NCBI RefSeq assembly: GCF_000003815.2
Contig: NC_049996.1
Location: forward strand, 7,088,131 to 7,152,130
Direction: 5' to 3'
Origin: Branchiostoma floridae
Lineage: Eukaryota; Chordata; Leptocardii; Amphioxiformes; Branchiostomatidae
Length of the DNA stretch: 64,000 nt
Each line of letters begins with the position of its first letter. The first letter of the stretch is position 1. Shown here piece after piece: positions 1 to 64,000 of the stretch. Position numbers and translations under genes: made by a program. The notes below the pieces were generated by a model. The model did not search any database. It was not told the origin of the DNA and worked only from the letters and a program-made list of their open reading frames with translations.

Positions 1-3000
1 GGCTGGAGCCTGAGCCTGATGATGATGATGAAGATGATGAAAATCCAGTCTCCTATGAATATATCATTGAGATGTGCCGCTATACAGACGGCAACATCCT
101 GAATACATGGGAGGAATGCAGTGAAAGAACAACAGAACTTAGTTGTAAATTAAAAGTAAAAGTTCAGCACGATGGAAAGTACCGCTTTCGTGTGTCAGCA
201 CGTGACAAGGACAGGAACATCACCAGCCTTCCAGAGGAAATGGGTAAGAAATCATGGTTTCATTTGAGGTTTAGATCAAATTACACTGCACAATTCCTGA
301 CAGATAGTTACATGTACACTATTACTGTATGCTATGCCATGAAAGCAATTTCAGATTCATTTTTCTCGAATGACAGATTGATATGCCTCATATTCATCTT
401 GTTGTGACGTCTATTTTGCAGGTGACCCAGAGATACATATTCGTATCAAACAAATGAATACAGAAATAGGATGGCTTGAACGATTATTGAGAATATGGAA
501 TATCTTTGGTACAACACCTGAAAGTCAGCAGCCTGGAAGTATTGTCTTTGTCATCTCGTGTCAACACATGAGTGGTCTGCGTGAACTGTGGATGAACTAC
601 AACCTGGGGAAACTGGAGAAGTTCTTCGAAGATCTGTTTGCCATTGAAGACAACCCTGCTTCCGACACAGAACTTGACATACAAATTGACCCTGAGAATT
701 TCTATGCCTGCCGTCAGCATCTCCTGTTGACTCATCCTAACAGTAAAGGATTCCGGGTGGTGAAAGTTGGGGATAATTCCTCCAGAGGTTAAAGACTGTC
801 TCATTGTTCTACAAATGAGCATTTAGTACATTTTGATTGTTATCAAGCTTGCATTCCTTTTTTCACAAATTATAATTAACATTGTCAACTTACGTTTAAC
901 ACATTTTTAACAGTACTTCATATTCAGAATTAGATTGTTTTCCTGTTTCACCTCAAAACCAAAATATTACACACAACTAGAAACCTATAAATGATGTAAA
1001 AAAATCAATAAAACCAGAATGATAAACAATGTATTCATAGCTTTCTTCCATGATTGTCATATCATGTTGTATAACCTTCTTGATTAGGAACAGAGCTGGG
1101 ACTAAGTGAGGATTATCCAGTCTACTGCAGGCCAGTGCTACAAAGAACAGCCTTCTCAGAGCTGGATTTCTTGGACCTTGCAATAACCACTAATAAGCAA
1201 CCAACAGGTCAGTGACATACATGTAAATGTACTTTATTAGCATAGTTTGTGTAAAAGAGACATCAATTTAATCAAAATGAGCAAGCCCATTACAGTCTAA
1301 CATGTATTAGCCTACATTGAATGCCACTCAAACAGCCTAGGGCTCTTATTTCTATGGAGGCCAATCAGTGCTATGCTTCCTATTAATAGTATCATTGAAT
1401 CAGGTTCCAATATACAAAGTGCTTTAAAGGTATTAAGATCCAGTAAAAAGCCAAAATTGCCCTTATGTGCAAGTTGATCATTATATTGTACATGGTATAG
1501 GTATACAACATAGATGATGTTGCTCTTCAGATGATACCTCCAAAGATTTGGGCCCTTCAGCGACTAGTATTGGCACTGCTGTCACTGTGGAACTTCCTGT
1601 TTTAATATCTCATATTTTAGACATGCTGCGGTCATGCATGATTTTAGAGTGGTTTGAAAGATCATAGCTCTTGGGAGGGATCTCAGTCTTAAAGGTTTGA
1701 GTGTCATTACCTTGCATTTTTTAAACTACAGGCCTCAATTGTTTACTTTAATACAGTAACTCAAGAAGGGTTAACATTGAATTGTCATAATTTTGGTATG
1801 CAGATCACTAGAATGATGATTTACATATAATTTAGAAGCTAATAATGCAAGTCACTAATACTTTGCATAAGAGGAAAGTGTGAAATTTGCTACATTTTAT
1901 AATAGAACCCTCAAACTTGTTACGCGTAACTAACCTGTTTGAGAAAGTAAGTAAAGGCACGCGTCGATCTCGCAGGACCATGAGCAGTTTGAGAAAGAGT
2001 CTGATAAATATTGACAGATGTCAAGTATGACAATGGACTGGCCAAAGTTGCATGATTAATGAGAAAATACATTTTCTATTTTTAAAACTTATGTCAGTTG
2101 GAAGTCAAGTAAACGCACTGAAGACAGTATCAGACATAAATGATGCTTTATCATTTAACAATTGATTCATGATGAAATGCTACAGCATTCTTTGCTCATA
2201 TAAGGTGACCTCGTAGTTTTAACAACTTGATATACTTGGATACAGAGAAAATCAACTCATATATATATATATACATTGTAATCTATGCAGATATATCAAA
2301 TGCAAACCTTTTTTGCATATTAAGCAATGAGAAACATCACTCAAAAATGTTTAACATTATTTGCCAACAGCATTGAGGCCGTTGAACTCTAGTTCATGAT
2401 ATACCAGAACTAGAGTTCCATGTACCCATGCATAACAAATGCCAAAGGTGGTAACCTTTGTTATGTATCACAATCATTTTTCTATCCAAATAATAAGTTA
2501 ATAACAAAAGTTGTTGTAAGTATGAATTTCCTCAATATCAAATAATGTACTAAATGATTATTCATGTCTAATGTTGTTCACCCATTCTAAACTTCTGGTA
2601 TTGCTGCAAATTCCTGACAGTTGCCATTATGGAATTTCCATAATAATAATTGGTTCTGTTTACCTCCATGAAATGTCATGGAGGTTATATTTTACCCTGT
2701 GTTTGTGTATGTGTGTGTGTGTGTGTGTGTAAACAAAATAACTCAAGAACGGTAGGGTGGATTGATTTCATACTTGGTGTGTTGGTAGTGTGTGATGAAA
2801 GCTGGAAATGATTAGATTTTGGGCCCCCTAAGCGACTCCCCTTGGTACTGCAGCGCAACTTCCGGTTTTGCTATCTCGGTGTTCTGAACATGCTATGGTC
2901 ACGATTTTTTAATATTAGATAGCTCTTGTGCTCAGGAAGAAATGACATAAGTTTGGGCCCCCTAGCGTCTAGTTTTGGGATAGCAGGGGCATTTTTGTCA

Positions 3001-6000
3001 AAAACTTCTGAAGAGGATAACTCAAGAAGGGAACAACGGATTTTCATGATTTTTGGTTTGTAGGTACCTTAGACAATGTTGTACAAGGTAAGATACTAAT
3101 TATGCAAAATAGGAATTCATTTGCATAATTAATGAGAATATATTCTATCATAGCAGTTTTTTCTATGTATCTCTTGTCCTGGACATGATATGGCCTTGAC
3201 ATTTGCCTGGTAGATAGCTTGCAGTGTAATGACAAAGTGGGGTAGGTTTCAGCCCCCTAACATTTAATTTTGGAACTGCAGGGGCATTTTTGTCAAGACA
3301 TTCCAAAGAGGATAACTGCAGAAAGGATTGACGAATTGGCATCATTTTAGGCATGCAGGTAGCTTGGGCAAAGATGTTTAGAATGATATGCATGTTATGC
3401 AAATGAAGCCGTAATTTGCATGATTAATGAGGGAATTGTATAATTCCATTGTTTGCAATAACTGGACTTCAATAAATGTAACACTTGTTAATTATGATAG
3501 GTGGAATATAAGCAGAAACCAAATATGGTAATGAGGAACTAATTTGCATAATTTATGTAAAAATTGCAAAACTGCCCATTGACTAATGATTTAATAATTT
3601 TGACATGTGTTTGTTAGCCAATGATGAGTAACACCATGCATAAATTATGTTAATGTGTTAGTCAATTGCATGAAATTCACAAAAGCTCTAAACATTCATG
3701 GAGGTATGAGGTCGCCGAACTCTAGTTAATTGATATTTCCATCTTCCTCAGTTTATGAACTCCAATAAACTGTTTCACAGCTTCATATCACTCATTAGTT
3801 TGAGATCCCTGTCATGGAATACAGAGGATTTATGAATCTTTATTATAGTATGCAGATTACATAGTTTGCTTATTTGCGGGATTAGAGTTTGATATGTAAA
3901 CCTTTAGCTATCTAATAGTATGTAACAAATATCATGACGATTTGCCTCCCCCTTCTTGAGTTATTCTTTCAAACTTTACCCCAAGCCTGTTAAAAAAGTT
4001 GATGAATTGTGACACCACATGCTGTCCCAAAGCTATCTACCCTACTCAAAATCATTACGGTACCATAGTATATCCAAAACATGAGATCAAACCACAAGTT
4101 TTTACAATGTATTGAATTTCAACCACGAATTTATCAACTGCTTGTATAATATACTTCATGCATTTAGTTTTCTTCATCATATCAAAGGTATAGGGAAGAG
4201 ATTACCTCGGACAAGGGAGAAGTTACCTGGAGCAACAGGGAGGTCACCTGGGACAACAGAGAAGTCACCTGGGACAACAGAGAAGTCACCTGGGACAACA
4301 GAGAAGTCACCTGGGACAACAGAGAAGTCATCTGGGACAACAGAGAAGTCACCTGGGACAACAGAGAAGTCACCTGGGACAACAGAGAAGTCACCTGGGA
4401 CAACAGAGAAGTCATCTGGGACAACAGAGAAGTCACCTGGGACAGACCAGGAAACACTTATTATGTACCAGTTACAGTCTGAAAGGCAGACCATACAGCA
4501 TCTCCAGAGAGAAGTCAGACAGCAGACAGAGGAGAAGGAGAAAGTAGAGAAAGTTCTCCTGGACAAGGAAAAGGAAATTGAGGGCATGGAAGAGACCATT
4601 GATGAACAAAAAGCAGAAAACAGAAAACTGACTAACAAACTGGCAGGTTTGGAGGCAGAACACAAACTAGCTCAGCACCAGGAAGATCAGCAGAAAGCTA
4701 TGGTGAGAAGTTTAGAGAGGGAAGTCAGCAGGCTCACACAGGAGAATGAGTCAGCACAGAAAGTTCTCTTGGAACACAACAAGAAAACAGAGGAAGTAAC
4801 AGTGGCCAATAGAGATCTGACAACTGAAAAGACAAAAGTGGCAGACAGACTGACAGGTTTGGAGGTTAAATATGAGATAGCTAGGCATCAGATAGATGAA
4901 AAGGAAGACATGGTGAGAAGTCTCCAGAAGGAAGTCACCCGACTCACACGGGAGCAGGAGACAGCACAGAAAGTAATTATGGACAACAAGAAGACAATTG
5001 AGGACTTAACAGGAGTCAATAAGGGCATGGCAGAAACCATTGAAGACAAACAGCTTACTGAAAAGACAAAACTCACAGACAGACTGGCAGGTTTGGATGC
5101 AGAACATGAGAGAGCTCAGCACCAAGTAGAATTGCAGGAAGACATGGTGAGAAGTCTCCAGATGGAAGTCAACCGGCTCACAAAGGAGAAAGAGACAGCA
5201 CAGAAAGTTCTCACGGACAAAGAGAATGAAATTGTTGACTTAGCAAGAGCCAATAAGGGCATGGAAGAGACCATTGATAAACTGTTCGCTGAAAACACAA
5301 AACTGACCAACAAACTGGCAATGATGGAACAAGAAGAAAAGTTGAAGGTTGACAAGGAGGAAGCCACTGGTTTTTCACAGAAGGAGACAGAACGAAAACA
5401 GGGGAAGGCAACTGAGGACTCAATGGGAGCCAATAAGGGCATTGAAGAGACCATTGAAGAACAGCTTGCTGAAAAGACAAAAGTGGCAGACAGACTGGCA
5501 CGTGTGGAGGCCAAACATGAGATAGCTCAGCGCCAAGCAGAGTGGCAGAAAGACATGGTGAGAAGTCTCCAGAGGGAAGTCTCGCGGCTCAAGAAGGAGA
5601 TAGAGACAGCACAGAAAATTCTCCTGGACAACAAGAAGGAAATTGAGGACTTAACAGGAGCCAATAAGGGCATGGAAGACACCATTGATGAACTACTAGG
5701 TGAAAAGACAAAATTGACTAACAGAATGGCAAGTTTGGATGCAGAACATGAGAGAGCTAAGCACCAAATAGATCTGCAGAAAGACATGGTGAGAAGTCTC
5801 CAGATGCAGAGCGAGGTTACCCAGCTCACAGAGAATCTGGACATTTCAGGTAAATGTGAAAGGTCTCAGTACTTTGTTTTTATCTATTTCTAGACCAGTC
5901 ATTCATCTCAACTGGTATTCAGATTCAAGGCTATTACAATCTAATTTGTAAATTATTGGGGGCTTTGTTACTTTATTTTCTTCTTTCAATTATTTGGAAA

Positions 6001-9000
6001 TAAAGATTACATGAAGCACTCAAGATATGAACAAACCGCACAAAAGTGATACCACAATTGAAGACAGAAATTTAACATTTCTGCAGATTCCAAATTGCTT
6101 TAGTCTTTTTCGGCATTTAAATTGACCAGACAGGAGCTTTGACAGTTTGGAAATATTTTTAATACTATTTCAACTTTCTAAATATTTCCTTTGTAAAATG
6201 TGTAAAACTTAAGATTCTGAAATATTCATGATGTGGAATAGGATACTTGAAATTCTTACTAATACCTGTAGTTTGCAAATAATAGCAACAGCATTATACC
6301 ATTATTAACCATTTTCTACCAATTTTGTTACATTTTTAAATGGGTCAGTGGGCTGGAAAGAAAGCAATTCATACATTCTTGCAGAGCACTGTTAGGTGTC
6401 ATGTATCAATGGCCCACCACAAAGGACCCACTAGTGCCCAGCAATGAAATCAATATATTACTGAGGCAGACAATAGGGCTCACTTTTATGAGAGCAATAA
6501 ACTAATTCTACCATTTGGAAAAAACCCTTGTTTTAGGAACCTTAGGTCAATTTATTTACTTCATTTTAATTTAAATTAAGAACATTATAATAATTTTTTT
6601 GGTGTATATTAATTGAGGCAGTAGTGCCAAATATCCAAACTTGCATAACTTGTTGAGAATGCACTGTAATAAGCATTTTCATAAATTGTTAGTTACATGA
6701 CTTTGTGGCATAACAAATCCTACTACTCAATAATATACATGTAATAAGTTATATTGAAAGATGTATTGTGCATCTCTGCCACTTCATCCATTACCTACAT
6801 TTGTACACCTCAAGGTGGTCTGCATTGGGAATAAAATCAACGAGGTTTACTTTCACTAACGATTCACATGACAACTTGTATTGTGCCTCTACACCACATG
6901 GGTTTGCAATTGATGGTTTCATTATTAATGATAAACTTTTGTATCAATATACTCTATTGACTGATATCTTGGTGTGTTATTATACCATAGATTTGCTACA
7001 TCAAAATTCTAAATACAGTATTCTAAATGTTTCTCTGTCTTCTCTATCACAGAAAATAAGGATTCGCTTAGTCCTTTACTTGTAGCGACATTCCGGAACG
7101 AAATCAGCCGATACTATGCACTACAGGTATGCAAGCAGCAGCCTGTGGCATACGATGAAGAGTTCATCTTGGATGTAGACGATACATTTACTACGATGGA
7201 TATCCTACAGTACAATGTGCGTCGCCAAGCTTTTGACCGACAACCATTAGAATCCATTGCAGATATTTTCAATCCAGGTCCCAACCGTGCATTGGCAAGT
7301 CCTGTAAGAATCCTGATATGGGGGGTTCCCGGAATTGGAAAGACCACCCTTATTGCCAAGATATTGACTCATTGGAACAAACAGGATGTAGGAGTCCTAA
7401 AGCGGTATGACCTTGTTTTTGCCATTGCTTTGAGGAAGGTTGAGAGGACACAGTCTATTGTGGACTGCATCTTTGACCAGCTACCTGTAAGTGACGTGCA
7501 CATGAAAGAAGTCCTGGAAGACTATCTTCGCAGAAGCAGCAGAGTCTTAATCATTTTGGATGGATATGATGAACTTGGGTGGCAACCAGATGAAGATCAC
7601 GACATCATGAAGCTCCTGACAGGCAGACTGTTTCCCCACGCCTCCGTCCTTGTTACTACAAGAAAAACATGCACCTCTGATATCATTGAAAAGATGAAAC
7701 CAGACACCCGAGTCGAGATCTTGGGCTTCAGTCCTGACAACGCCAAGAGCTTCATCATGAAGTATTTTGGAAGACAGCCATCTGAAGGAGAAGCACTGCT
7801 TAAGAAGATTGGCCCAACCCTCCTGAGTACAGGAATCTTCTCAGTACCCATGCTTCTCCTCCAAGTCTGCTTGCTTTGGGAAGATGACCAAGATGTGATA
7901 CTCAGTGACAAAATTTGTCTTCTCTACAACCAGGTGGTGACGTGTCTTGTGCGACGTTATGGTGCAAAGGACAAGAACCCTGTACGTGTAGAAGACATGC
8001 ACGCACTTATGCATGCCCTGGAAAAACTGGCCTTTGAATGCTTGTTGAAGGAAAATGGAGTAACTGTGTTTAACCAGGAAGACGTGAAAAGGTACTGTGG
8101 AGAACAATTCATGATTCTGGTACAGCTAGGCTTGTTGAGAGAACAGAAAAACCCATCCAGGACAAATCCTGTTGCCCAGTACTCATTTTCCCACAAGACC
8201 ATGCAAGAGTACTTTGCTGCACAGTACCTATCAGAGAGATTGACAATAGAAGAGGCCACTAAGCATGAAATTTTGCGACAGTATTGCCCAACTGCCAGGA
8301 AGGTACAGACACTCGGTGAACTTCTCATATTGACATGTGGAAGATTGGGAAGGAAGGCAAAATTTATCCTGGACCATCTGAGAGATATCCACAATACGCC
8401 TGATGTACAACTTGTGGAAGAAGAGTTCTACAACTTCTTTGTAACTGGAAAGTCCAAGAAAGACTGGAACAAGGACATCAAGTTGGAGGACTTTGCAAGT
8501 GCAGAAGACCTGACACATCAGTTCATAGGCCAGTGGAATGACTACCCTCCTGTGCTGCTGACATATCAGAGCTACATGGAGTTGTATCTCCTCTGCTGTC
8601 ATGAGAGCGGCCTCACTGCTCAGTTTGCCGAGCAGGTGTTTCTGAGAGACACCATCCAGTTCTCTGGTGCCAGACCAAGGGTGTACAGCGTGCTGTCTCA
8701 CATGATAGCTGAAGCTAGTGAGAAGATTAAGGGGATAGAGCACCTACGTCTGGTCAACATGCAGAACTACTTCCTTGGTTCGACTCTCGAGGAGCTGCAC
8801 AAGTTGTCAGGTCTGAAAGAGTTGAATCTGCGTCAGTCAAGGCTTGGTAGGCACCTTCCAACCTGCACCATCCCCAGGAGGCTGGAGCTACGGTTCAAGT
8901 ACAGACGAATCATGAAGACATCAGAAGATGACTTGGCTAAGGCACCTGCTCTCCTAGCCAGACAGCTACCCCACTTAAGATCACTGAAGAAGCTGGTCAT

Positions 9001-9702
9001 TGCTTGGAATGACCTTGGTCCTGAAGACATGAAACAACTCCTTCCAGCCATAAAGGAACTGACGAACCTAGAACAATTGTTCCTGTCAGGAAACGACCTT
9101 GGTGGCCTGGGAAAGAACGTGACTGACCTTGTGGCCTTCCTTCCCAAGTTGAAAGTCTTCGAGGTCTACTTCTGCCAGCTCACCTTTACAGAGATCCAGA
9201 TGATAGGTATGTTTCTTACTGAATGTTGCTGTAGCTATTATAATAGTAAACTAGGCCTGTAAAACCAGCCTGTGGAGTATGTAATATTACTGTAAGTTAT
9301 TCAGAGTACAAACTTCAATGAAATGTTGGTTTGCATTTTTCAGTTATGAGTAAACATAGCTGATATTCTATGATTGACAAATTATACTAAGCTTGAACAT
9401 TTAGGACCATGTATGTTCATGATATTTTCAATTCTCTTTCTTTTTAGTATGTTTTAATGATGCCTCTGTGACTAAACTGTTCTTCCAAATTTGTGTACTT
9501 GAACCTTTTCATTCTTTTCCTAGCATCCAGTCTGACTGAGAACTGCCCAGACCTGGAGCTGTTTGACTTCCAGCTGAACCCCATCCAGCCTGGTGAGTCC
9601 ATCTGGGTTGGGGAGAGAGAGATGGACACAGTAAAAGCAACACTCAGTGACAAGGTGTTTGTGCCATTATATGGGAGTATAAAATTACCTCCAGCTTTTT
9701 AG
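1..9702 (+). CDS. NLR-type gene, 5'-truncated: FN3 - TRADD-N-like - coiled coil - NACHT - LRR
   Basis: Exons read as 1-243, 422-787, 4188-5849, 7053-9206 and 9524-9702; every junction is phase 1 and the in-window frame gives 1533 codons plus stop. Exon 1 is the end of a fibronectin-III domain and matches the second FN3 exon of the minus-strand gene at 41.9 kb. Exon 2 is a TRADD-N-like domain (alternating strands and helices, ending DPENFYACRQHLLLTHP). Exon 3 is a 7-aa repeat linker plus a long coiled coil. Exon 4 is a NACHT STAND ATPase: Walker A GVPGIGKTT at 7321-7347, Walker B LIILDGYDEL near 7549, and the NLR winged-helix signature FSHKTMQEYFAAQYL near 8185. RI-type leucine-rich repeats follow from about 8740. 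The likely role is cytosolic sensing and oligomerisation. The 5' end (CARD or other N-terminal domain) lies left of the window. The strong donor GTGAGT at 9593 means more LRR exons could exist; I saw none. Joining exon 2 to exon 3 rests on phase and on the similar order in the 55-59 kb gene. Confidence 0.78.
788..4187. other. Intron of the NLR gene, rich in dispersed repeats
   Basis: This 3.4-kb stretch lies between the TRADD-N-like and coiled-coil exons. I see no coding exon. It holds at least two fragments of a dispersed AT-rich repeat family (about 1530-1900 and 2384-3727) recognisable by GGGCCCCCTAG-like blocks and repeated ATTATGCAAAT motifs. A GT microsatellite lies near 2707-2732. Confidence 0.7.
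2384..3727. repeat. Dispersed non-autonomous repeat, family A copy
   Basis: The element is bounded by the motif GAACTCTAGTT at 2384 and 3717; the left boundary is a 12-bp inverted repeat (2384-2395 with 2407-2418). Inside are a (GT)n tract, repeated 'taactcaagaa' blocks, GGGCCCCCTA blocks at about 2821 and 2958 and several TTTGCATAATTAATGAG-like segments. Copies with the same blocks occur near 1530-1900, 35340-35560 and, in inverse orientation, 51736-53165. There is no open reading frame of note. The class is unknown. Confidence 0.55.
4225..4446 (+). repeat. In-frame 21-bp coding minisatellite (7-aa repeat)
   Basis: About ten copies of a 21-bp unit encode the heptapeptide KSPGTTE, twice varied to KSSGTTE. 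It sits at the start of the coiled-coil exon of the NLR gene, between the TRADD-N-like domain and the coiled coil, so it should form a flexible Ser/Pro/Thr-rich linker whose length can change without breaking frame. The copies are almost identical, which suggests recent expansion or homogenisation. Confidence 0.9.
4447..5849 (+). repeat. Coiled-coil array of about 66-70-aa units in the NLR gene
   Basis: The rest of this exon encodes roughly five to six repeats sharing a core like DMVRSLQxEVxRLTxExExAQ followed by KEIEDLTGANKGMEETI and EKTKLTxRLA. Charged heptads and the absence of proline indicate a long coiled coil. A single unit with nearly identical wording occurs in the glycosyltransferase gene at 56993-57504. 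DNA-level repetition means copy number may vary between alleles. Confidence 0.85.
5850..7052. other. Intron between coiled-coil and NACHT exons
   Basis: AT-rich sequence. The phase-1 donor TTTCAG/GTAAATG at 5849 pairs with an acceptor at 7051-7052 after a pyrimidine tract. I see no additional exon or recognisable repeat. Confidence 0.6.
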
Positions 9703-22306: not shown

Positions 22307-22308
22307 AT

Positions 22309-26500: not shown

Positions 26501-26594
26501 GTTAGATGAACTGGGCATGAAGAGGTGGGGAAACAACCCAGGGTATCTGGCTTATAGGGAGAGGACAGCAGTTTTGGTGCCTTATGTGTGGTAG
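23505..26594 (+). CDS. DUF1295 / steroid 5-alpha-reductase-like membrane protein
   Basis: Four exons, 23505-23684, 24719-24937, 25511-25607 and 26320-26594, join in phases 0, 0 and 1 to give 256 aa. The protein is strongly hydrophobic with about six membrane segments. Family signatures are RxLREGKDTRFDEAKRNPAHF near residue 85, WTLQAVWVFITLLP, and the C-terminal SGLWSISQHPNYLGEISLWLG with GVPLLDELGMKRWGNNPGY. Members of this family are putative ER or membrane oxidoreductases related to the steroid reductase C-terminal domain; substrate unknown. The ATG at 23505 was chosen because it follows an acceptor at 23499 and matches the usual short N-terminus; an in-frame ATG at 23478 is the alternative. 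Exon 2 and the terminal exon are both partly duplicated nearby. Confidence 0.85.
24145..24745 (+). repeat. Five tandem copies of the DUF1295 exon-2 acceptor and 5' end
   Basis: The AG/GTCCAGACCACCCTAG acceptor and about 80-100 bp of following coding sequence (VQTTLVLIWALRLGSYLFL) occur at 24147, 24305, 24444, 24585 and 24719, spaced 158, 139, 141 and 134 bp. Only the last continues into the full exon. Upstream copies run into stop codons or frameshifts soon after the GKD motif. Intron sequence between units is also shared, so this is a tandem DNA duplication. Confidence 0.92.
25765..26035. repeat. Intronic minisatellite, about 41-43-bp unit
   Basis: Six to seven copies of a unit centred on CCTGTCCTTGGTGCTGAACA followed by C-A-rich sequence lie in the last intron of the DUF1295 gene. 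The core word CCTTGGTGCTGAAC also occurs singly near 16712 and 17238, so the motif is dispersed. Confidence 0.85.
26112..26280. repeat. (CA)n / (CATA)n microsatellite
   Basis: Long CA-rich simple repeat interrupted by TA steps. It gives His/Thr-rich and Cys/Val-rich reading frames on the two strands that are not genes. It ends about 40 bp before the last exon of the DUF1295 gene. Confidence 0.95.
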
Positions 26595-30838: not shown

Positions 30839-30841
30839 AAC

Positions 30842-51735: not shown

Positions 51736-53165
51736 GAACTAGAGTTCCACGAACACATACCTTTGCCAAATAAACCAGGTTTGTTATGTAGAATGATGTC
51801 TGCAGACAAATGCGTTACTCATTTCATTTTCTTTATAATTATATGCTTGGAGCTGGTTTATAAGATTTCGGTAGTCATTATGCAAATTAGATCCCAAGTT
51901 ACAATTAATTGATATCAAATTGTATCAAGCATTACTTAAGCTATCAGCATACCAAAAATCATGATGATCCTTTGATCCATTCTCTTTCAAAGTCTTTAAA
52001 TACACCTCTTACTCTCTTCCCTCTTTCTCAGTTACATATGTGACAACTTTGATGAAAGTACTATAATGGAATGCAGTGGATTTATTAACTTTTCCTAATC
52101 AATTATGCAAATTACCTGTTTTTTTGCATAATAAGTATCACATTATATAAGTCTTCACTTGGGCTATCTACATGCCAAAAATCATGACGATCCGTCAACA
52201 CGTTCATATTTTCTCATTAATTATGCAAATGAGATCATCATTTGCATGATAAATATGTATTGACATTTCTCTCTTTCTCAGCTACATATGTGACAAGTTT
52301 TAAAGTCCTATCATGGAATGTAGTGAATTTATAAAATATCCTCATTAATTATGCAAATTAGCTGTTGATTTGCATAATTGGTATCTCATTATGTAGGTCT
52401 TCACTTACGCTACCTACATACCAAAAAACATGATGATCCGTCAACATGTTCATATTTTCTCATTAATTATGCAAATGAGGTCATCATTTGCATAATTGAT
52501 ATCTATCGACATTTCTCTCCTTCCCAGCTACATATGTGACAAGTTTGAAAGTCCTATCATGGAATGCAGTGGATTTATGAATTTTCCTCATTAATTATGC
52601 AAATTAGCTGTTGATTTGCATAATCAGTATACCATTATGTAAGTCAACACTCATTCTATCTACATACCAAAAATCATGACGATCCGTCAACACGTTGTAG
52701 AGTTATTCTCGTCCAAAGTTTGAAAGGAAACCGGCGCCTGCAGTTCTAGGGGGCCCAAACTCACAGCACTTACTCTCTGCCTCGAGGACTATCTACCACT
52801 CAAAAATCATGACCACAGCATGTCCAGAACACGAGATATAAAAAATTGAGTTTCCGCTGCAGTACCTTAGCAAGCCGCTAGGGGGCCCATTATCGAACTT
52901 GACCTTCGTTTTCCCGACCCCTACCCACCTACCAAATATCATCGGGATCCATCCAAGGCTTCTCGAGTTATGCTGTTAACTTGTTGATATTGAATGAATG
53001 ACCTTTATTGTACATTTGTGCTCAAACAAGCTAAGTACAGGTCGTAGCGCTAGTGATAAGGTACAATTTTGACAAAAAAAAGGTATCTTAACACACAGAC
53101 ACACACACAGACACACACACAGCTCACAAGCCCAAAACATAACCTAGCCATTCTGGCAAAGGTAA
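51736..53165. repeat. Dispersed repeat family A, inverse-orientation copy
   Basis: Starts with GAACTAGAGTTCCA, as in the copy at 2407. It contains at least three near-identical blocks of about 200-240 bp (CATTAATTATGCAAATTAG and CATATGTGACAAGTTT) between 52020 and 52680, GGGGGCCC blocks at about 52749 and 52882, and a CA tract near 53096. The blocks are reverse complements of those at 2.8-3.4 kb. No coding capacity. Confidence 0.6.
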
Positions 53166-54919: not shown

Positions 54920-57900
54920 TTATTCAATCAATTCACAGACCCGCAGCAGGTTTTGGTGCGACTCTTCCCAGTACTTGGACTCCAGGAGCTGCTTCTTGTA
55001 CTCTGCAGCTCTCTCGAATTCCAATTCAGAGTACTCCAAGGTATCTACGATCTTTTCCGCCCAACGTTTTGCATCTTCATCTAGGTCGGACTCCCTCACG
55101 CTGGTTCTCACGATTCTGTGCCTCATGTCTGCATGACACTTCCCGCCCATGATTAAGTCCTTGATCATGTCCGCCAGCCCTGACTTGTCAGAGATGAGTA
55201 CAGGGACGCCTGCTGCGATGGCCTCCAGGCCGATCATTCCGAACGGCTCGGCACGGGACGGCATTAGGACCAGGTGGGCCTGCTGCATGTCCTGAGCGAT
55301 GTCCTCCTGGGTTCCACACGGCAGTAGTGTAGGTTTGATCCTCCCACTGTGCAGGTTCTCCTCAAGGATTTTCTTGCTGGCTTCCCAGACATCTTCATCT
55401 ATCCCACGAACACGCAGTTTGACGTTTGGGATCTTCTCTGCGGCCTCCCCAATGGCCCGCGCTACCAGATCATGGCCTTCCAGCTTCTCCACTTCGGTCA
55501 CTCTCCCGACAGTCAGTACCACTTTCTCTCCTCCTCCTGGTCTTACAGAGATGGCTTCAAATAGTGAGGACGGCCTTGGAAGGAACATCAAATGTTCTCT
55601 TGGTTTGCTGTCTCCAAGTGACTTGTACGTCACCTCGAAGTGGTCGTAGATTCTGCTTCCTAAGGAGAACACGGCATCTGCATTCATGGCATCCTCTAGT
55701 ATGTCTTGCTTCGTCTTCCCGGCCGCCATCGCTTTCTGAGCTCCCTTGTAGTACTCCGTGTCTTCTGGCATGTCGTGGTTGAAAAGGAACAGTTTTGCGT
55801 GTGGACAGCGGTCCTGCTGCATGTTCTTAGCAGCTTTACTTGTGACACCTGCATGGCCCACAATGCACTTCAGATCGTGTGGTATGTCTTGGTAACGAGT
55901 GGTGTGGTCAAAGGTCAGCCATTCTAATGATGGTGTTCTCTTGTCCCTGGGATTTTGTATAGGTAGATGCAGAATGACACCATCCTCTGTGGCACACCTT
56001 TTGTTTTCTTCAGATGCTTGCAGAGCTGTACAATGAACTGTAGCCCCATGACGTAGCAGAAACTGTGCCACTTGACGGTTGACAGTTGAAGTGCCTCCAA
56101 AGAAGGCACCGTACACGTCGTTCACCAAGAGAACAGATGTCTCTTGCCCTGTAACAGCAAGAAATTTCCATATAACTAGTCATTGATATTAACAATCATA
56201 ATGCGCGGAATGTTTTTTTTTTCATATTTGAAACAAACCCCACTTTATTACTCCAAATGGTATATTTTCAACTCATCTACACATCTAGTCTATTAAAAGT
56301 TTCATATTGTTGTTTCTGTATGGATACGTAGACAACCATAAACATTAACACCGCGTTCACCAAGACTTGCAACTGAATGAACTTTGTGTGTCTAGAGATA
56401 GGGCTTGCGATCTTTGTGTCTACTTGTAGTCTAAAAACAACATAAACTGAGACTCTTTAGAACTGTACGTAGATACCATAAACGTTGTATCATGGCTTTG
56501 TCCGTTGCGCACGATATCTTTGATGACACAACATTTAGAAATCACAGACGGATATACGCGAACACGACCTTCTACGTTACGTTTTGTTGAAGTGCTGTCT
56601 CTGCATGGCAGAGTAAGTTAGATGGCAAGCATACCTTCCAGAGCATATTTATGTTGTACTCACCCTTCATTCTTTTGCTGCTGCCTGCCACCACCTCTAG
56701 ACCTGGTGACCTCTTCATTTTACCTTCTTGGCAACAACAAAATTACATCAGTGAATTACTTTATGAAAGCTTCCAAAATCAATGAACATGAAGACATCAC
56801 TCAGAGAAACTACTTTTTTACTATCTTTGAGAAGCAGAATCAGTCCGCTTGTTGGTAAGCACTTTACTTTTTGTCTATACAGATATAGGGCATAGAATGT
56901 ATAAAATATCTGCGACCAAAAATTAATCTGTAAGTATGATCTTAATGTTGTATTGAATTTTGTTGGTCGACAAATATACCTCCAACACTTACCTGCTGGT
57001 GTCGGCTCCGTGGGTTTACTGGCGCTTGTGGCTTCCCCCGCAGCACGTGTACGTGGTAATCGTTCGCTTTCCATCATTGCAAGTTTGTTCGTCAGCTTTG
57101 TCTTTTCAGCAAGCAGTCCTTCAATGGTCTCTTCCATGCCCTTATTGGCTCCCGTTAAGTCTTCAATTTCCTTCTTGTTGTCTAGTAGAACTTTCTGTGC
57201 TGTCTCCTGCTTCTCTGTGAGCTCTTTGACTTTCCCCTGGAGACCTCTCACCATGCCTTCCTGTAGCTCTACCTGGCGTTGAGCTATCTCATGTTTGGCT
57301 TCCAAACCTGTCAGCGCTTGTGACTTCTGCTTCATCTTGAGCACCAGCTGTTTGGTGTTAGTGTCAGTGGCCCAGTCAGCAAAGTTGGAGTCCTGTGTTC
57401 TGGTGGCGGCCAGGTCCAAACTGTTCAGCAGAGGACGGCTCTCTTTTTCTTGGGCTGGAGCAGCAAGGCTGTCAAGCCGTCGACAGAGGTGGTGCGCCTT
57501 ATTCCTAAGTGTTGAAATGACCCAGAATCATAATTAGTTCTATATAGTTTCTAAAAAATAAACGGTGAGCTTTGTCCTTTCAAAAATTACTATTTTTAAT
57601 CTATCCTGCCTGTATTTAGGAATTTATGTCATTTTGACATTTGCCATGGCTTTCGTAATATACACTTACACTTGTTGGTCAAACGTGCCAGAAAGTTCAT
57701 GACGCCCACTGTTTCTGTTCAGTGATGGCTGGAATACCTTGTGATGATGTACATGGCCTCCTTCAAACTTCTTACTAAGTAGTCCTGTTCAGTGTCCAGT
57801 ATTCTGACTTTGGACAGGCACGTTTGACCGATTGCTAACGTCATGTATCCGCAAGATTACGTGTTAATGATATTATGTGTCTGCAACTCTTGCGAATTTA

Positions 57901-59747
57901 CGTTCTGAAGTGTCCAAGGGATTGGTCATCAGCATTGATACTGAAGAAGGCGACAGTAGTCGTTGCAAATTTAATCCGTGTATACCTCTGTGTTGTAATA
58001 ATGTTTAGCATTGTACTATAATTACTACCAACACAGATGAGCTTCTATAATACACTTACCTTTAGTTTATTTTTTGTACGATGCAGTGATGAATATGTTT
58101 TCAAGTGGCAATGTGTCTTACTAAATGAATCTATATATTGATAGTAATCTTTATTAATCCATAATAGATAGATATTGGTTCTCACTTATTTACCTTTTTC
58201 CAAGCGACGTCGTACTCTCAAGTAGTCCTCATGCTTGACATGGAACCTCACGATCAGGTCTGCTCCGTTAACTTTGCTACGGAGACTATCTGAGATGAGT
58301 ATCCCTGTCAGCTTTTCAGAAAGTGTCCCAGGCCCTATCTTATAATGCTCATGGTAGAATGTATCTACGTCACTTATTTGGAGAAATACCAGTCCTAAGA
58401 TAAAGCATCCAGAGCCAATTGAATACACTTGAGCTTTGTACTCCTTAAACACCGACAATGTTTGCGACAGACGTGTAAGGTCACTGAAAACTTCATCTGT
58501 AAATAGTTTCTTCTCTGCATGTACGACTTTCTGTACAAGATCCCTTGCCGTTTCTTTTGACATGATGCCCAGCTTTACCTTCACAAGCAGTTCTGAAAAT
58601 AAAGACGTTAATGTAGGTTATTTGTTAGTTTGGTTTTACAAGTTGACACACCTATTCACTTCGACATTTACCTAACTTCTCTATTTACTATTTTCCTATA
58701 TTTACTATTGTGTTACATAATTTTACATTGTATATTGATTTGTCACTGGATTGCATTTTAACAACAAAGACGAGCAACGCTTTTAATCTATCTTGTTTCA
58801 TAGATGACGTGTTGAATTTTCTACCAACGTAGTATGCGTAGCGTTTCAGCCATATGTGAATTGTACATGTTTGTTTGACCACAAAAACAACGTGCCAGTG
58901 GGGGCTTACATGTACATGGTACATTAAATTTATTTTACAGTGGAACAACAGGGGACTGTATTGGAATGTTACTTGAAAGGCAAAAGAAAATAGTTGTGTG
59001 TGGGATAAGAAATTATCCATTGTACTTACCTGGTGGGAGTGCATCTTCAGGAACTCTCTGTTTTTGAGGTACTATATTTTGTGATGAATTACCTGGACAA
59101 AAAGAACAAAAATATAACGCACATGCACAGTGTGGTTTAGCCTGTGTTTACACAAGCTCTCGCTGGCTGGGCTTAATGACCCCCTCTCCTAGGGCGGCGG
59201 CAATCGTAGGGCCGGCCGCTAGGGGCGCGATTTTAGTCAGGCTAATAAGTGTGGTTGTGACAGCCAAAATGGGCAGTCAAGGAATATAAGACGGTTAGAG
59301 ATCATACAGAATCCATAAATTTCCTCGACTGCTATTCGCTTGCCATGCTGACATTCCTGATCTTCGGACACCCTTTCAACATCAGTCATAAATACACTAG
59401 AAGGCTGCTAGGAAGCCTAAACGTCTAACACTTTCTCCTGAACATGTGAAATGTACATAATTGGTTAAGACCCGTGATTACATATATTAAGAAAACACGC
59501 AGAAAACGACTAAAACATGCACTAATCAACGTCCATATACGTTTTGTACATTGGCTTTAAATAAGGGCACGTATAATTTATAAAGTTAACATACACTGAA
59601 AATAACATCATTTTTTTCATTACTAAATAATGACCTTAAGTTACTTTTATCCAGCTGTAACTCATGATCACCATCAATGAATGAATATTGATTACCTGCT
59701 TGTCTCTTTTTCGCTTCCTGAATTAAAGCAAACTTGGACTGTGCCAT
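54920..59747 (-). CDS. TRADD-N-like - coiled coil - GT4 glycosyltransferase fusion
   Basis: Six coding exons, 59747-59696, 59092-59030, 58592-58194, 57807-57738, 57504-56993 and 56148-54920, chain in phase to 774 aa. Start: MAQSKFALIQEAKKRQA. The third exon (residues 39-171) is a TRADD-N-like domain (ELLVKVKLGI, then GSGCFILGLVFLQISDVDTF, ending VKHEDYLRVRRRLEK). A coiled coil follows, with LLDNKKEIEDLTGANKGMEE almost as in the NLR gene. The last exon (about 366-774) is a GT-B fold, GT4-type transferase: FGGTSTVNRQVAQFL at the N-lobe, VVLTVGRVTEVEKLEGHDL, and the C-lobe EPFGMIGLEAIAAGVPVLIS (E-x7-E motif). It lacks a signal peptide and membrane segment, so it is probably cytosolic. Donor sugar and acceptor unknown. 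An acceptor at 59761 implies a 5'UTR exon, perhaps ending near 60436. The small exon 57807-57738 is the least certain but is needed to reconcile phases. Confidence 0.85.
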
Positions 59748-59760
59748 GTTGGTAGTAGCC

Positions 59761-61511
59761 CTGCAAATAGACCATTACAATGTAAAAAAAAACCTTTGAA
59801 GCCATGCAAACCTACAGAATGCAATCATATGCATGTTTAAGCTTTCACTGTTTTATTGCCAAGGTCTTTCCCACGTTGTGTAATCAATACGCTATGATCC
59901 GACTTGAACTTCAATGCTCAACACAACTACTGTTATCTACGTTACTATTGGAACGTTTGTGGGATTGGGTACTATAGCTTCTGCATTGTTTAGCATAACA
60001 GAAACTCAGAGCCAAACCAGTTCAATAACTATTTGTGACCCGCGCGTGTTTAGTCACTGACCTCCTATGCTTACAGAAGTATAAACCCAAAATACAGGGC
60101 TGGACTAACGCAAGCCTTGCCACCGATATGGTCTAACCTAACAATAGCATACAAGTCAAAGGTCATGGACGTTACACTATTCACATACATGGAAGACCAC
60201 TACCCAGCCCCCTTCCCCCCACCACCACCCCAACACACACACACACACACACAAACAATATAGCCCCGTTTGAAAACTATTGAACCGAGGCTAATGGCTA
60301 AGTACCCCTTGAACCCAACGGTCTCAGATAGGGCCACTTATTTTGTGTGCGGCCAACAAATGAAAGGTAAACAAACTGCAACGTATCCCTAGTGGTGCAA
60401 TAATCGTGATTTTGATTATTAAAACAAGACAAACCTCTTCCTTTTCAAGTCAGTTCTGCAGCTTTCATTGAGGAGCGCCTGGAGTGTACTAAAATGGCCG
60501 CTGTCTGTGATTAGACTTTCACCTACTGCTTAACGGCGCTCACCTGTTGTAGCCATCCGCACCGTAAGTTGAAATACTTCAAATTCAACTTGAACAGGCT
60601 TTTACGACCTAACTTAATCCGCAACGTCAAAAAGCGATGTACGCATTAATTACCTCCTGGAAATATTCTACAAAGAGTAAGTTGTTCTTTAAGATATGGC
60701 ACTATTTATAAACAGGTACCGGAGTGCGGAAGAATACGCTTATCGACCCGGAAAGCACACCAACATTGACATGCGGGGTTATTGATACACCTGAGTGTGT
60801 TGGAGGTACAATGTAGTTGACTATTTGCACGATCTACTTCCGGGTCAAATATTAACCCTTCTCTCTACGTCTGACTAACTCCAGTGATAGTGTGTTTAAA
60901 CTTCGCGTCTTCAGCAGAACGCCACACTGCAGTGCTTTGCTGAACTGTCCTAGCATTTTGTGTAGGCTCAGGTAACTAAGTAAATCTTACTCTGTCTCTG
61001 TTCTTTTCAAGTTCGGCAACCGTGCCGAAGCAACAGGCCTTCTCCATTTCAGTCACATAATGCACTCGTAGGGGGCACATTTCAAGGTTAACAAAAGAGA
61101 CTGACCAAGTAGACATTGCATAACAACCTGATGCGAGTGCTTGTTGGATTGAATTTGTGTGCGAATCTCTCTCCCTCTCAAAAAAGTGTAGGATACGTTA
61201 AGCCTCGACGGGCAAAACGTCTGATTTGACAGCAAAGTCTATCATTTAGTCAAGGAGCTTTTATCAGATAAAAGCTCCTTGATTTAGTCACGCATTACTT
61301 TCAACCAAAGCGGCTATTGTCACATATCGTGCAGTATACAGGTAAGGCATATAAACACGTTTGGACTGGTTCATTGTTCGTAGTGACTAGTATTATGTTT
61401 TGTATATTCAAGTTAGACATCATTTCAAAAGTGTACATGTTTGTGCTCAGCTATGGGCTGATTATAAGCTCATCACGGCATCACGTTTTTAACAGACATG
61501 TACATGTCACT
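59761..61511. other. Region between the glycosyltransferase and pannexin starts
   Basis: Divergent arrangement. A minus-strand 5'UTR exon is plausible at about 60436-60520 (donor AAGAG/GTTTGT). A YY1-like AAAATGGCCGC occurs at about 60491. A CA tract lies near 60233-60253. No further coding sequence is seen. Confidence 0.4.
61250..61282. repeat. 33-bp near-perfect palindrome
   Basis: 16-bp arms TCAAGGAGCTTTTATC (61250-61265) and their complement (61267-61282) are separated by one base. It lies about 230 bp upstream of the pannexin start. It could be a regulatory dyad or the end of a mobile element. Confidence 0.85.
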
Positions 61512-62998
61512 ATGCTTTCTGAAACAGACATGGACCCAGGTATACTCCGAGATCTCTTTACCCAGGGTTTGTTCAGCCAGACAGACCCGACTCGCCTCCA
61601 TGCGGAACTGTGGGCTGACTACATGTCAAAGGTCATGACTACCTGGCTGCCTATGCTCATGGCAACAGTCCTGGTGGGGAGGGACTTGTTCGGTGAGTCG
61701 TTGTGGCGGTGTTATTCTTGTCGACATCTTTGACTCTGATAAAAGCAAGAACAACCTTACTTGTGATATTGCAGTTTTCCTTTACACAATTAGTCATGTC
61801 TCTCTCCTGCCTACGTTTCGATGTCTATCAGATATATTCCTCAGAGCTTCCGACTGGAGTATGCTTCTCGTCGCCATCTGTAGCCGATGTAGGTGACACT
61901 TTTCTGGTGAGAATTGTGAATCCTAAACGTGGCTAAGTTTGTATTCCCCTGTGCATTTAGATAAACTGATCCTGAAAACTGTCTTGTATTATACGCATCG
62001 ACCCCACACATTCATTCTTTTGTCTACATTTAGGCGCGGGCACACAATGCTTCCCCGTGAATCTGACACACACCCAGCCTGGTACAAACATGACGTCAGC
62101 AGACAACACCAGCTACGCACCTAAACCTGTCCTCAACGAGATCTCTGACTACTCGAGGCAACTAGCCGAGTACGTGAATGTTTACTGTGCACAACAGGAT
62201 CATTACCAGAGTTCTACCATGTTTAGTTACCAACTCTTCACCATTATGCTAGTTATTCAGGCAGGGGTGCTTTATGCACCCATGTTGTTGTGGAACGTCA
62301 CTACAGCTAGGAAGATTCTCTGTCACCTAAGATTTCTACTCCATGACACTGATTTGTTGTACCACCGTCACAGAGGTGACCAGGAGGCCAGGGGTGGCTA
62401 CGAGCAGTCCGAACTGGTCAAAAACGTCAACATATGGATCAAGCATGACAGCTTGTATAAACATTACATGATGAAACAACTTGTCACTACAGTGTGTTTG
62501 GGAATCTTTATAACAATTTACTGCACAATTCCATCTCTGACAGCATCTAACATACATGATGAGTTTTTGTGCTCTGTCAAAGACAGGTTCACAGTGGATT
62601 GTGCCGTGCCATCGGCCACTGTACATAGGTGTGTGTGGTTTACCAATTTGGTACTGCTATTTCTTAACGTTTCCTGTATCGTAGGTCACGTTGTTACTCT
62701 CAGGTACAACCACTTCTATGGTACACATCAACCATTTAGAGAACTGGGCATCACACTTGATAAACCGCCACTGAATGATGCCCACCTTATTCATATGTTC
62801 CTTCGAGCCAACATTGAGTCGAATGACAAGTACAACTATGTGAAAGTTCTAGAGGATGTTGTATCAGAAAATGATCCAAGTATGAACACAACAAACACAG
62901 CATACTCTGTACGTAACGAAACAAACAGCCCGCTGGATCATTCCCCTAGTTTAGGCCCGACTAGGCGGCAGTACATATGTTATGAGTCTGGTGTGTGA
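61512..62998 (+). CDS. Pannexin / innexin-family channel
   Basis: Two exons, 61512-61692 and 62034-62998, join in phase 1 to give 381 aa, close to the family's usual length. Four hydrophobic segments: around residues 43-60, LFTIMLVIQAGVLYAPMLLW, QLVTTVCLGIFITIYCTIP and FTNLVLLFLNVSCIVGHVV. Loop 1 has paired Cys (about C66 and C112, GTQCFP and YVNVYC); loop 2 has SNIHDEFLCSVKDRF and further Cys. The C-terminal FLRANIESNDKYNYVKVLE resembles pannexin. These proteins form large-pore channels that release ATP or couple cells. Loop 1 carries three N-glycosylation sequons (about N70, N79, N85), expected to favour single-membrane pannexons over gap junctions. The start at 61512 is the first reasonable ATG; the ATG at 61530 or an upstream exon is possible. 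Confidence 0.87.
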
Positions 62999-63847
62999 TA
63001 GAATACGATTTTAGTCGTGTGCACATTGGTGATTACGTAACAGTCTCAGAGATGTCATATTTTAAAAAAATGTGCCCGAAGAAACTGTTATGATATTATC
63101 TTTCCAACCGATGCGCTTTGCTGCGAAATGCCTAGTTTAGGTGAGAAATTACCCAAACCCACAAATATACTGGACCCACATACAGGTATTATATATGTGC
63201 GGGCTCAGCAGGAAAAGGGTTTCAACATCATTTCCACCAACACAACTGATGTGTTATTGTGCCGAACACTCTTCACATCAGCACTGTGTCTACCCTTCCC
63301 CGAACTGAATGTCAACATCAGCCTTCTGTGTCCATTGTGACAAACGTTTTACACAAGTCTGGTACCCCAGCTTTTGTCTCTGGTGCTGAATGGTGTTCCC
63401 ACTGCCTTTGCTTTGATTCAGCCGGTCTCATGACTCGTATCAGGAAATGTCCACTTCTTCAGCAAACCAGATAAGAGACCGTCTTCTGCTGGCTTAATTT
63501 TAATTCTTATTTCTGGTGGTCCTGTAAAATAGATGGCAAGATATTGATTCAGATACCCAATGTAGATAATTGATGACCATTTCTATGCAATATTTTAATG
63601 TTCTTATAGATATTGCTGATTGTAATCATATCCAGGTCAAATTGCGTTTGCATTGCCTTTGTCTCTGTCAGCATGGCTAGCCAAAAATGAATTAAAGAAT
63701 AACATATTTTACGACTTGATTCGCAGTATAATATCCTTACATACGACTCATGACATCACGCTAATTGATAACGTGTGTTTAAATTTTCAGAAGTGATATG
63801 CAATATCATTCATTATATCTCATATATAAAAATCCATGATTTCCTAC
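62999..63847. other. Pannexin 3' flank
   Basis: No exon is recognised on either strand. In particular, no TRADD-N-like exon is present on the minus strand after the FN3 exon at 63848. Confidence 0.5.
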
Positions 63848-64000
63848 CCAATGCCGTTGGAAGGCTGCTGACATTCTTGTCTTTATTAAGGGCTGACACA
63901 CGAAAGCAGTAGGTTCCTTCTTGTTGAACTTTGACCGTACCCTTGCACTCTGTTGTTCTGAGACATTCTTGCCATGTTGTTAAAAGGTTGTCAACATCGT
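63848..64000 (-). CDS. FN3 exon of a further FN3/TRADD-N-family gene (partial)
   Basis: The minus strand encodes DVDNLLTTWQECLRTTECKG and then the FN3 end TYCFRVSALNKDKNVSSLP, stopping at a phase-1 donor ATTGG/GTAGGAA at 63847. It is clearly homologous to the FN3 exon at 1-243, more so than to the one at 41940-42233. The gene's 5' part is right of the window. Its next exon is not obvious within 5 kb; the phase-1 acceptors at 59092 or 58592 would fit, which would make it an upstream exon of the glycosyltransferase gene with the pannexin gene nested in its intron. Confidence 0.8.

What the first reader, a model, noticed from the sequence alone, without database searches (positions are those of the whole stretch)
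1..64000. A cluster of three TRADD-N-like proteins with three different output domains
Within 60 kb, TRADD-N-like exons occur at 422-787, 41240-41653 and 58194-58592, joined respectively to NACHT-LRR, nucleotidyltransferase-TPR and a GT4 glycosyltransferase; a fourth member's FN3 exon is at the right edge. The sequence shows one sensor/adaptor toolkit combined with interchangeable outputs. TRADD-N outside TRADD has been described in comparative genomics of metazoan and bacterial conflict systems; a physical cluster with three distinct effectors is worth describing as a possible modular immune locus, since partners could assemble through shared TRADD-N, CARD or coiled-coil domains.
Basis: partly seen in the sequence, partly recalled or inferred. 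Interest (0 to 1): 0.88.

Follow-up and report, generated by a model that had tools for sequence, protein, structure and literature searches.

The report
Lancelet TRADD-N cluster beside pannexin-like channel
A stretch of lancelet chromosome holds several genes built from the same interchangeable immune adaptor block, a kind already known from these animals; two carry a recognisable effector, one supposed fusion is probably a separate gene, and the cluster includes a relative of the cell-death channel pannexin that recurs beside these adaptors.

Summary
The three exons are real, at exactly the stated coordinates, and TRADD-N-like. None hits Pfam TRADD-N directly, but 14 of 28 E3 relatives hit TRADD-like_N, and the E1/E2 profile matches the E3 profile (score 42.3; best of 100 shuffles 19.6). 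GT4 (gene C) and NACHT-LRR (gene A) fit as spliced outputs. The nucleotidyltransferase-TPR is probably a separate gene: its first exon belongs to a family whose copies start at a stop plus Met (5 of 6 read). Gene D, at the right edge, carries an in-frame stop. TRADD-N exons are phase 1-1 modules (36 of 37 donors, 35 of 37 acceptors). In a second cluster 9 Mb away the same blocks are followed by TIR and by Death-trypsin. TRADD-N expansion with varied outputs, GT4 included, is published for Branchiostoma (PMC8195603). Not found in print: a divergent innexin/pannexin-like channel family (10 loci; Pannexin-1 6.7e-17), divergently placed upstream of 4 of 5 close FN3-FN3-TRADD-N genes and of gene C. 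It conflicts with a published statement that lancelets have one innexin. Other Branchiostoma genomes could not be tested.

The parts
1..243 (+). Gene A, second FN3 exon (acceptor lies about 65 bases left of the window; donor after 243, phase 1)
   Evidence: similar to gene B FN3-2, E 5.4e-13
422..787 (+). Gene A, TRADD-N-like exon E1, phase 1-1, GS motif
4188..5849 (+). Gene A, coiled-coil-like exon (by eye; no coil predictor was run), similar to the corresponding exons of genes C and D
   Evidence: E 7e-103 to gene C's exon; repetitive sequence inflates this
7053..9206 (+). Gene A, NACHT exon with first LRRs; acceptor 7053 or 7086, phase 1; Walker A and B read by eye from recalled motifs
42673..43314 (-). 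Gene B, CARD-FN3 exon, phase 1-1
41940..42233 (-). Gene B, second FN3 exon, phase 1-1
41240..41653 (-). Gene B, TRADD-N-like exon E2, phase 1-1, GS motif; the frame could also run on to a stop shortly after the donor
37701..38399 (-). Probably a separate gene: first coding exon (TPR-like) of the nucleotidyltransferase-TPR gene, donor phase 0
31960..35184 (-). Probably a separate gene: nucleotidyltransferase (DUF294-type) plus TPR exon; best acceptor 35184, phase 0 (a phase-1 acceptor at 35105 also exists)
58194..58592 (-). Gene C, TRADD-N-like exon E3, phase 1-1, GC at the GS-motif column in the profile alignments
56993..57454 (-). Gene C, coiled-coil-like exon, phase 1-1
54920..56148 (-). Gene C, GT4-conflict glycosyltransferase exon; no Met in the frame before the domain, so it cannot be a first exon; E-x7-E motif read by eye (recalled motif)
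61272..61733 (+). Possible first exon of the channel gene (open frame only; no match confirms it)
   Evidence: (no Pfam match)
61976..62998 (+). Innexin/pannexin-like channel, main exon, divergent from gene C
63848..64000 (-). Gene D, second FN3 exon (acceptor at 64132, past the window); the rest of gene D (FN3, coiled-coil-like, CARD-TRADD-N with an in-frame TAA) lies right of the window, about C18:7152.6-7155.4 kb
63421..63582 (-). Possible truncated E1-type TRADD-N remnant after gene D's FN3 exons (by eye only; profile A2 did not report it)

Best explanation
This is one of several lancelet clusters of TRADD-N-type immune genes assembled by shuffling of phase 1-1 exons. A constant block (CARD and/or two FN3 domains, then TRADD-N, then a coiled coil) is spliced to an exchangeable output exon. 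Most likely (inferred): CARD and coiled coil recruit and oligomerise the protein, FN3 domains bind a partner, and TRADD-N bridges and holds the output. On sensing an invader the output acts: in gene A a NACHT-LRR sensor/NTPase that drives assembly, in gene C a GT4 enzyme that glycosylates an invader or host target. Gene B is either a bare CARD-FN3-FN3-TRADD-N adaptor or has an output not found here. Gene D looks decayed. Shown: exons, domains, phases, clusters and gene order. Inferred: joins between exons, immune role and every biochemical step.
For: TRADD-N kinship. Phase 1-1 exons: best donor phase 1 in 36 of 37, best acceptor in 35 of 37. Similar coiled-coil-like exons follow TRADD-N in genes A, C, D and both TRADD-N genes of cluster 2 and in the C5 gene. 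Outputs: NACHT and GT4; TIR, Death and Trypsin_2 in cluster 2, with compatible phases. TRADD-N followed by GT4 recurs at C12:3.25 Mb, 1.5 kb apart. GT4-conflict is expanded: 57 places scored of 102 candidates. The published model has a TRADD-N bridge with variable effectors in Branchiostoma and other marine invertebrates (PMC8195603, sections 8, 10, 11, 12 and 15 read). Lancelets show extreme exon shuffling biased to phase 1-1 (PMC4284660, passages).
Against: No transcript evidence for any join. Gene A's first FN3 exon changes frame and gene D has a stop and perhaps a truncated second TRADD-N, so part of the cluster may be pseudogenes. Of 5 further E1-type genes, 4 were read for 7 to 8 kb downstream (C3, C5, C18:4.9, C1; C11 partly reads N): C5 shows the coiled-coil-like exon, C18:4.9 a short TPR-like frame by eye, and no further output was seen by eye in frames of 100 aa or more; no Pfam scan was made there. 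No N-terminal domain was found for gene C and no output for gene B. Both AlphaFold models were useless (pLDDT 34 and 40), so the fold is unproven.
Confidence: 0.66

Rival explanations
1. All three TRADD-N genes are fused, so that E2 is spliced to the nucleotidyltransferase-TPR exon and the cluster has three outputs.
For: Same strand, about 6 kb apart, and a phase-1 acceptor exists at 35105. Kaur 2021 lists TTC28-like TPR and oligoadenylate synthase fusions to one clade of TRADD-N.
Against: A TPR-like exon with its own Met lies between them, and its phase-0 donor fits the best-scoring acceptor. Relatives of that exon: 151 matches listed (150 of 512 candidates scored); of the nucleotidyltransferase: 99 matches (96 of 579 candidates scored). 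In 6 of 6 relatives read, an in-frame stop lies within 11 codons before the start of similarity, with a Met in the last two codons before it in 5 of 6 and two codons into it in the sixth. In 5 of these 6 a listed nucleotidyltransferase match follows within 3 kb on the same strand, and none has a listed TRADD-N place within 0.7 Mb (lists compared by eye; the lists are lower bounds). No coiled-coil-like exon was matched after E2.
Confidence: 0.12
2. The cluster is ordinary tandem duplication in a gene-rich family, without any function in being clustered.
For: 42 of 73 TRADD-N places outside the C17 array lie in 13 clusters, mostly of one type. 50 matches sit in 0.6 Mb on C17. Genes A and D look partly decayed.
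Against: E1 and E2 are only 32% identical and E3 is 16% to E1, so they are not recent tandem copies. Mixed E1 plus E3 types occur in just two clusters (50-kb rule), both on C18 and both with a pannexin-like channel gene.
Confidence: 0.5
3. TRADD-N adaptors and the divergently placed pannexin-like channel are a functional pair: the channel is a membrane output (release of ATP or ions) controlled by the adaptor.
For: Channel upstream on the opposite strand of 4 of 5 close E1-type genes (5 to 16 kb) and of gene C (3.4 kb); 10 channel loci in 513 Mb, so the chance per place within 20 kb is about 0.0008. The pairs diverge broadly in step: C3 and C11 are the closest in both (77% and 71%), and the C18:16.2 pair is still linked at 53-56% and 46-50%. 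Profile match to Pannexin-1, 6.7e-17.
Against: Linkage may only reflect duplication as a block. The C5 gene, a close E1-type relative, has no channel within 25 kb, nor have C1 and C18:4.9. Within 25 kb the channel is downstream of gene D and of the TIR gene of cluster 2. 5 of 10 channel loci are not within 25 kb of any listed TRADD-N place, and some channel loci have stops or are fragments. No expression or physical data.
Confidence: 0.28
4. The exons are not TRADD-N but an unrelated lancelet-specific alpha+beta domain.
For: No direct Pfam hit for the three exons; PF09034 has no hit over cut-off in the whole genome; no TRADD chain in the profile searches of the PDB; no confident model.
Against: 14 of 28 E3-type members hit PF20694 TRADD-like_N; profile link of E1/E2 to E3; G[S/C] motif in the expected place; architecture as published.
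Confidence: 0.08

Closest known systems
Metazoan TRADD-N expansions (NCOA6 and DEDD2 clades) of Kaur, Iyer, Burroughs and Aravind 2021, PMC8195603
   Same: Branchiostoma included; TRADD-N usually between a recruiting part with a Death-like domain and a variable output; GT4, TPR and STAND outputs; proposed immune bridge.
   Different: In gene C the order in the paper's text (GT4, TRADD-N, LRR) is reversed: TRADD-N, coiled coil, GT4. FN3-FN3 in front, CARD rather than DED; phase 1-1 exons; linkage to a pannexin-like channel. The main text has no 'FN3', 'fibronectin', 'exon', 'intron', 'innexin' or 'pannexin'; figures and supplements were not read, so some architectures may be there.
Vertebrate TRADD
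   Same: Same domain superfamily; adaptor beside a Death-like domain.
   Different: No Pfam TRADD_N hit over cut-off anywhere in this genome; the partner domains differ.
NLRs (NACHT-LRR, CARD) of animals
   Same: Gene A has NACHT-LRR; genes B and D have CARD.
   Different: FN3-FN3-TRADD-N-coiled coil in front of the NACHT instead of CARD or pyrin (the usual NLR layout is recalled).
Pannexin-1 / innexins
   Same: Four invariant cysteines expected in the outer loops (6 of 6 copies), three membrane-span-like segments in the main exon, a loop-1 glycosylation site in 5 of 6 copies, profile 6.7e-17 to Pannexin-1.
   Different: In the genome search with Pfam Innexin only 4 of the 10 loci appear at E <= 1 and 2 pass the cut-off; 10 loci, against the one innexin stated for lancelets in PMC8769644.

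Membership tests
TRADD-N superfamily | Detectable profile similarity to TRADD-N / TRADD-like_N | tested here: met
   Indirect only: 14 of 28 E3-type members hit PF20694, E1/E2 profile to E3 profile prob 91.4. Direct hits for E1, E2 and E3 themselves: none.
TRADD-N superfamily | uS motif (tiny residue plus Ser, sometimes Cys) at the beta2-beta3 turn | tested here: met
   E1 GS, E2 GS, E3 GC in the profile alignments; the three-sequence alignment puts E3's neighbouring GS there instead. Motif definition.
TRADD-N superfamily | RRM-like two-layer alpha+beta sandwich | tested here: inconclusive
   AlphaFold pLDDT 34 (single sequence) and 40 (three sequences).
TRADD-N superfamily | Single copy between two other globular domains, usually with a Death-like domain | tested here: inconclusive
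   Fits gene A and the cluster 2 Death-trypsin gene if the inferred joins hold. Gene B has no known output, gene C no known N-terminal domain, gene D perhaps a second TRADD-N remnant.
DEDD2 clade of TRADD-N | Falls in the DEDD2/TRADD branch of the TRADD-N tree | not tested
   No tree with reference sequences was built.
GT4-conflict glycosyltransferase (PF20706) | Full-length profile match over cut-off | tested here: met
   E 5.9e-66, profile 1-385 of 385.
NLR (NACHT-LRR) | NACHT with P-loop followed by LRRs | tested here: met
   NACHT 2.8e-31; P-loop read by eye; LRR hits in the same exon are weak (best 0.005) and below cut-off.
Innexin/pannexin | Profile similarity to the family | tested here: met
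   Pannexin-1 6.7e-17 with a profile of five copies; Pfam Innexin in 6 of 6 copies at E <= 0.1, best 5.2e-6, window copy 0.004 and under the cut-off.
Innexin/pannexin | Two conserved cysteines in each extracellular loop | tested here: met
   C25, C71, C199 and C209 invariant in 6 of 6 copies; their place in the loops is inferred from the span-like segments.
Innexin/pannexin | Four membrane spans | tested here: inconclusive
   Three span-like segments in the main exon of the three copies checked (window, L054, L045); the first span should lie in exon 1, not established.

The most novel reading that the evidence does not exclude
Lancelets have expanded a divergent pannexin/innexin-like channel family, overlooked because most copies fall below the usual profile cut-off, and keep part of it in divergent gene pairs with FN3-FN3-TRADD-N immune adaptors. 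The pair would be an inherited adaptor-plus-large-pore-channel unit in which TRADD-N signalling opens or gates a membrane pore, beside the exchangeable intracellular effectors (NACHT-LRR, GT4, TIR, Death-trypsin).
Probability: 0.28. Interest if true: 0.78.

Novelty: new variant of a known kind. Interest (0 to 1): 0.5.

Why it matters
It gives the published TRADD-N immune expansion a concrete genomic form: a phase 1-1 exon cassette that appears spliced to NACHT-LRR, GT4, TIR or Death-trypsin. Exon phase is a testable alternative or addition to the retrotransposition route proposed in PMC8195603. It also removes one probable false fusion. If the channel family is functional, the claim that lancelets have a single innexin, and the bottleneck argument for the origin of connexins built on it (PMC8769644, passages and section 6 read), need revision, and a pore-forming output can be tested in invertebrate TRADD-N immunity.

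Tried and rejected
Direct Pfam scan of the three exons: no TRADD-N hit. PF09034 over the whole genome: two weak places, none over cut-off. PDB profile searches with both TRADD-N alignments: two weak, unrelated chains each, no TRADD. AlphaFold of E3 alone and of E1 with E2 and E3: pLDDT 34 and 40, so no fold search was made. Search of prokaryotic genomes with the E3 alignment: not conserved enough for the tool, not pursued. Idea that genes D and C are one gene with the channel nested in an intron: cannot be excluded from phase alone (D's last FN3 donor and C's TRADD-N acceptor are both phase 1), but an E1-like remnant and the channel lie between them; left open. Idea that gene B's output is a coiled-coil-like exon between 41.2 and 38.4 kb: no match; a run of N lies at about 40.7-40.9 kb. 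Other E1-type genes read for outputs: C3, C5, C18:4.9 and C1, nothing clear by eye. Rfam: only mir-2060. tRNA: none.

Papers: PMC8195603 outline, sections 8, 10, 11, 12 and 15 whole, other passages by term; PMC8769644 passages and section 6; PMC4284660, PMC12373286 and PMC6391747 passages; other papers only as search listings. Statements of 'not found in print' rest.

Full report
Place. The window is C18:7088131-7152130 of a 513-Mb genome in 431 contigs.

The three exons. Exons at 422-787 (+), 41240-41653 (-) and 58194-58592 (-) are open and flanked by splice sites at exactly those coordinates; each begins and ends in phase 1. Searched against the whole genome, E1 finds 12 places including E2, E2 finds 7 including E1 and E3 finds 32, not E1 or E2. 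So E1 and E2 are one type (32% identical) and E3 another (16% to E1).

Are they TRADD-N? Directly, none matches a TRADD family of Pfam. Indirectly yes: of 28 E3-type members, 14 match PF20694 TRADD-like_N (best 6.2e-8) and 4 match PF09034 TRADD_N (best 0.016). Of 8 E1/E2-type members one matches PF20694, at 0.048. The two type profiles align over 71 columns (prob 91.4) with score 42.3, against at most 19.6 in 100 column shuffles, 10.8 for the reversed profile and 10.4 for an unrelated family. Against this, two sub-alignments of the E3-type profile (12 and 14 members) alone score 22.0 and 26.0, PDB profile searches found no TRADD chain, and both structure predictions failed. The motif described for the superfamily is GS in E1 and E2 and GC in E3.

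Genes. Gene A (+): FN3, FN3, TRADD-N, coiled-coil-like exon (4188-5849), NACHT-LRR (from 7053 or 7086), with phase-1 sites available at each join. Its first FN3 exon, left of the window, changes frame, while the C3 paralogue's is open. Gene B (-): CARD-FN3, FN3, TRADD-N, phase 1; no coiled-coil-like exon or output was found after it. Gene C (-): TRADD-N, coiled-coil-like exon (57454-56993), GT4 (from 56148), phase 1; the GT4 frame has no Met before the domain, so it must be spliced from upstream. TRADD-N followed by GT4 recurs at C12:3.25 Mb; GT4 followed by TRADD-N within 10 kb, the published order, occurs at five places (two each on C13 and C19, one on C18). Gene D (-), mostly right of the window: CARD-TRADD-N with one in-frame TAA, coiled-coil-like exon, FN3, FN3.

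The nucleotidyltransferase-TPR. The large exon at 35184-31960 (-) has a partner exon at 38399-37701 with its own Met and a phase-0 donor, which fits the best-scoring acceptor at 35184, phase 0. Relatives of the partner exon give 151 matches with 150 of 512 candidates scored, and of the nucleotidyltransferase 99 matches with 96 of 579 candidates scored. In six relatives read, an in-frame stop lies within 11 codons before the start of similarity in 6 of 6, with a Met in the last two codons before it in 5 of 6 and two codons into it in the sixth. This is most likely a gene of its own, so the claimed third output falls. A phase-1 acceptor at 35105 keeps a fused isoform possible.

Modules. Of 37 TRADD-N exons examined, the best donor at the domain end is phase 1 in 36 (one has none there) and the best acceptor is phase 1 in 35, by a simple consensus score. 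The phase 1-1 bias of shuffled lancelet exons is known (passages of PMC4284660). On the same chromosome at 16.19-16.22 Mb the same blocks are followed by other outputs: TRADD-N, coiled-coil-like exon, TIR (TIR_2 1.2e-12); and FN3, FN3, TRADD-N, coiled-coil-like exon, Death (1.9e-7), Trypsin_2 (2.1e-10), with matching phases, phase 2 between Death and trypsin. A GT4 frame lies beside them. In four other E1-type genes no clear output was seen by eye in 7 to 8 kb, though C5 has the coiled-coil-like exon.

Clustering. Outside an array of 50 matches on C17 I list 73 TRADD-N places, weak ones included; 42 are in 13 clusters. Four places in 66 kb against 0.009 expected by scatter is no accident, but clustering is common. 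What is special is the mix of both types, seen only in the two C18 clusters.

The channel. The + strand gene at 61976-62998 (perhaps from 61272), which the finding does not mention, is innexin/pannexin-like. A profile of five copies matches Pannexin-1 at 6.7e-17. Four cysteines expected in the two outer loops are invariant in six copies, and a glycosylation site in loop 1 is kept in five. The window copy scores below Pfam's innexin cut-off. The family has 10 loci, some with stops or fragments. A copy lies upstream on the opposite strand of 4 of the 5 close E1-type genes (gene A, C3, C11, C18:16.2; 5-16 kb) and of gene C (3.4 kb); E2 is 20 kb from the window copy; the C5 gene has none within 25 kb; and the channel is downstream of gene D and of the TIR gene. 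Channel and TRADD-N copies diverge broadly in parallel, so the pair was probably duplicated as a unit. A 2022 paper states that lancelets have exclusively one innexin (PMC8769644); its method needed a Pfam innexin assignment or a reciprocal best hit, which could miss divergent copies. In this genome 4 places match PF00876 at E <= 1, two of them over the cut-off; which of them is the published innexin was not determined.

Known or new. TRADD-N expansion with variable outputs, GT4 included, in Branchiostoma is published (PMC8195603). New here, as far as the searches listed in Tried and rejected show: the phase 1-1 cassette, the FN3-FN3 constant part, the second cluster's outputs, the correction on the nucleotidyltransferase, and above all the linkage to a channel family. 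All functions are inferred. On re-checking, the confidence of the best explanation was lowered slightly, because outputs of four further E1-type genes were looked for only by eye and two genes of the window lack one end.

Noticed in passing
window 61272-62998 (+); also C18:7072.3 kb, C3:1637.8 kb, C11:9385.6 kb, C18:16202.4 kb, two on C10, C165, C18:5.52 and 6.82 Mb: Divergent innexin/pannexin-like channel family of 10 loci, conflicting with the published statement that lancelets have one innexin.
   Followed up: yes
L044-L046 (C18:16190001-16220000): Second TRADD-N cluster with TIR and Death-trypsin outputs, a GT4 frame and a channel gene; a 762-aa reverse-transcriptase-like frame (by eye) follows the Death-trypsin gene at L046 3668-5956.
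   Followed up: partly
C17:18.30-18.90 Mb: Array of 50 TRADD-like_N matches in 0.6 Mb, perhaps the published NCOA6-clade expansion (not tested).
   Followed up: no
window 31960-38399 (-): Member of a very large lancelet nucleotidyltransferase-TPR family; a GS..SDLE motif is readable (recalled motif), so possibly an active nucleotidyltransferase.
   Followed up: partly
window 12321-12638 (-): Two near-identical RING fingers in one frame (zf-C3HC4_3 3.9e-18).
   Followed up: no
window 25878-25965 (-): mir-2060 precursor (Rfam, 2.6e-15), on the strand opposite a DUF1295 gene with an exon at about 26283-26591 (+).
   Followed up: no
window 14937-15872 (-): Long tandem repeat with open frames in several registers (seen in the frames; no repeat finder was run).
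   Followed up: no
window about 40.7-40.9 kb: Run of N between E2 and the nucleotidyltransferase gene; an exon of gene B could be missing there.
   Followed up: no
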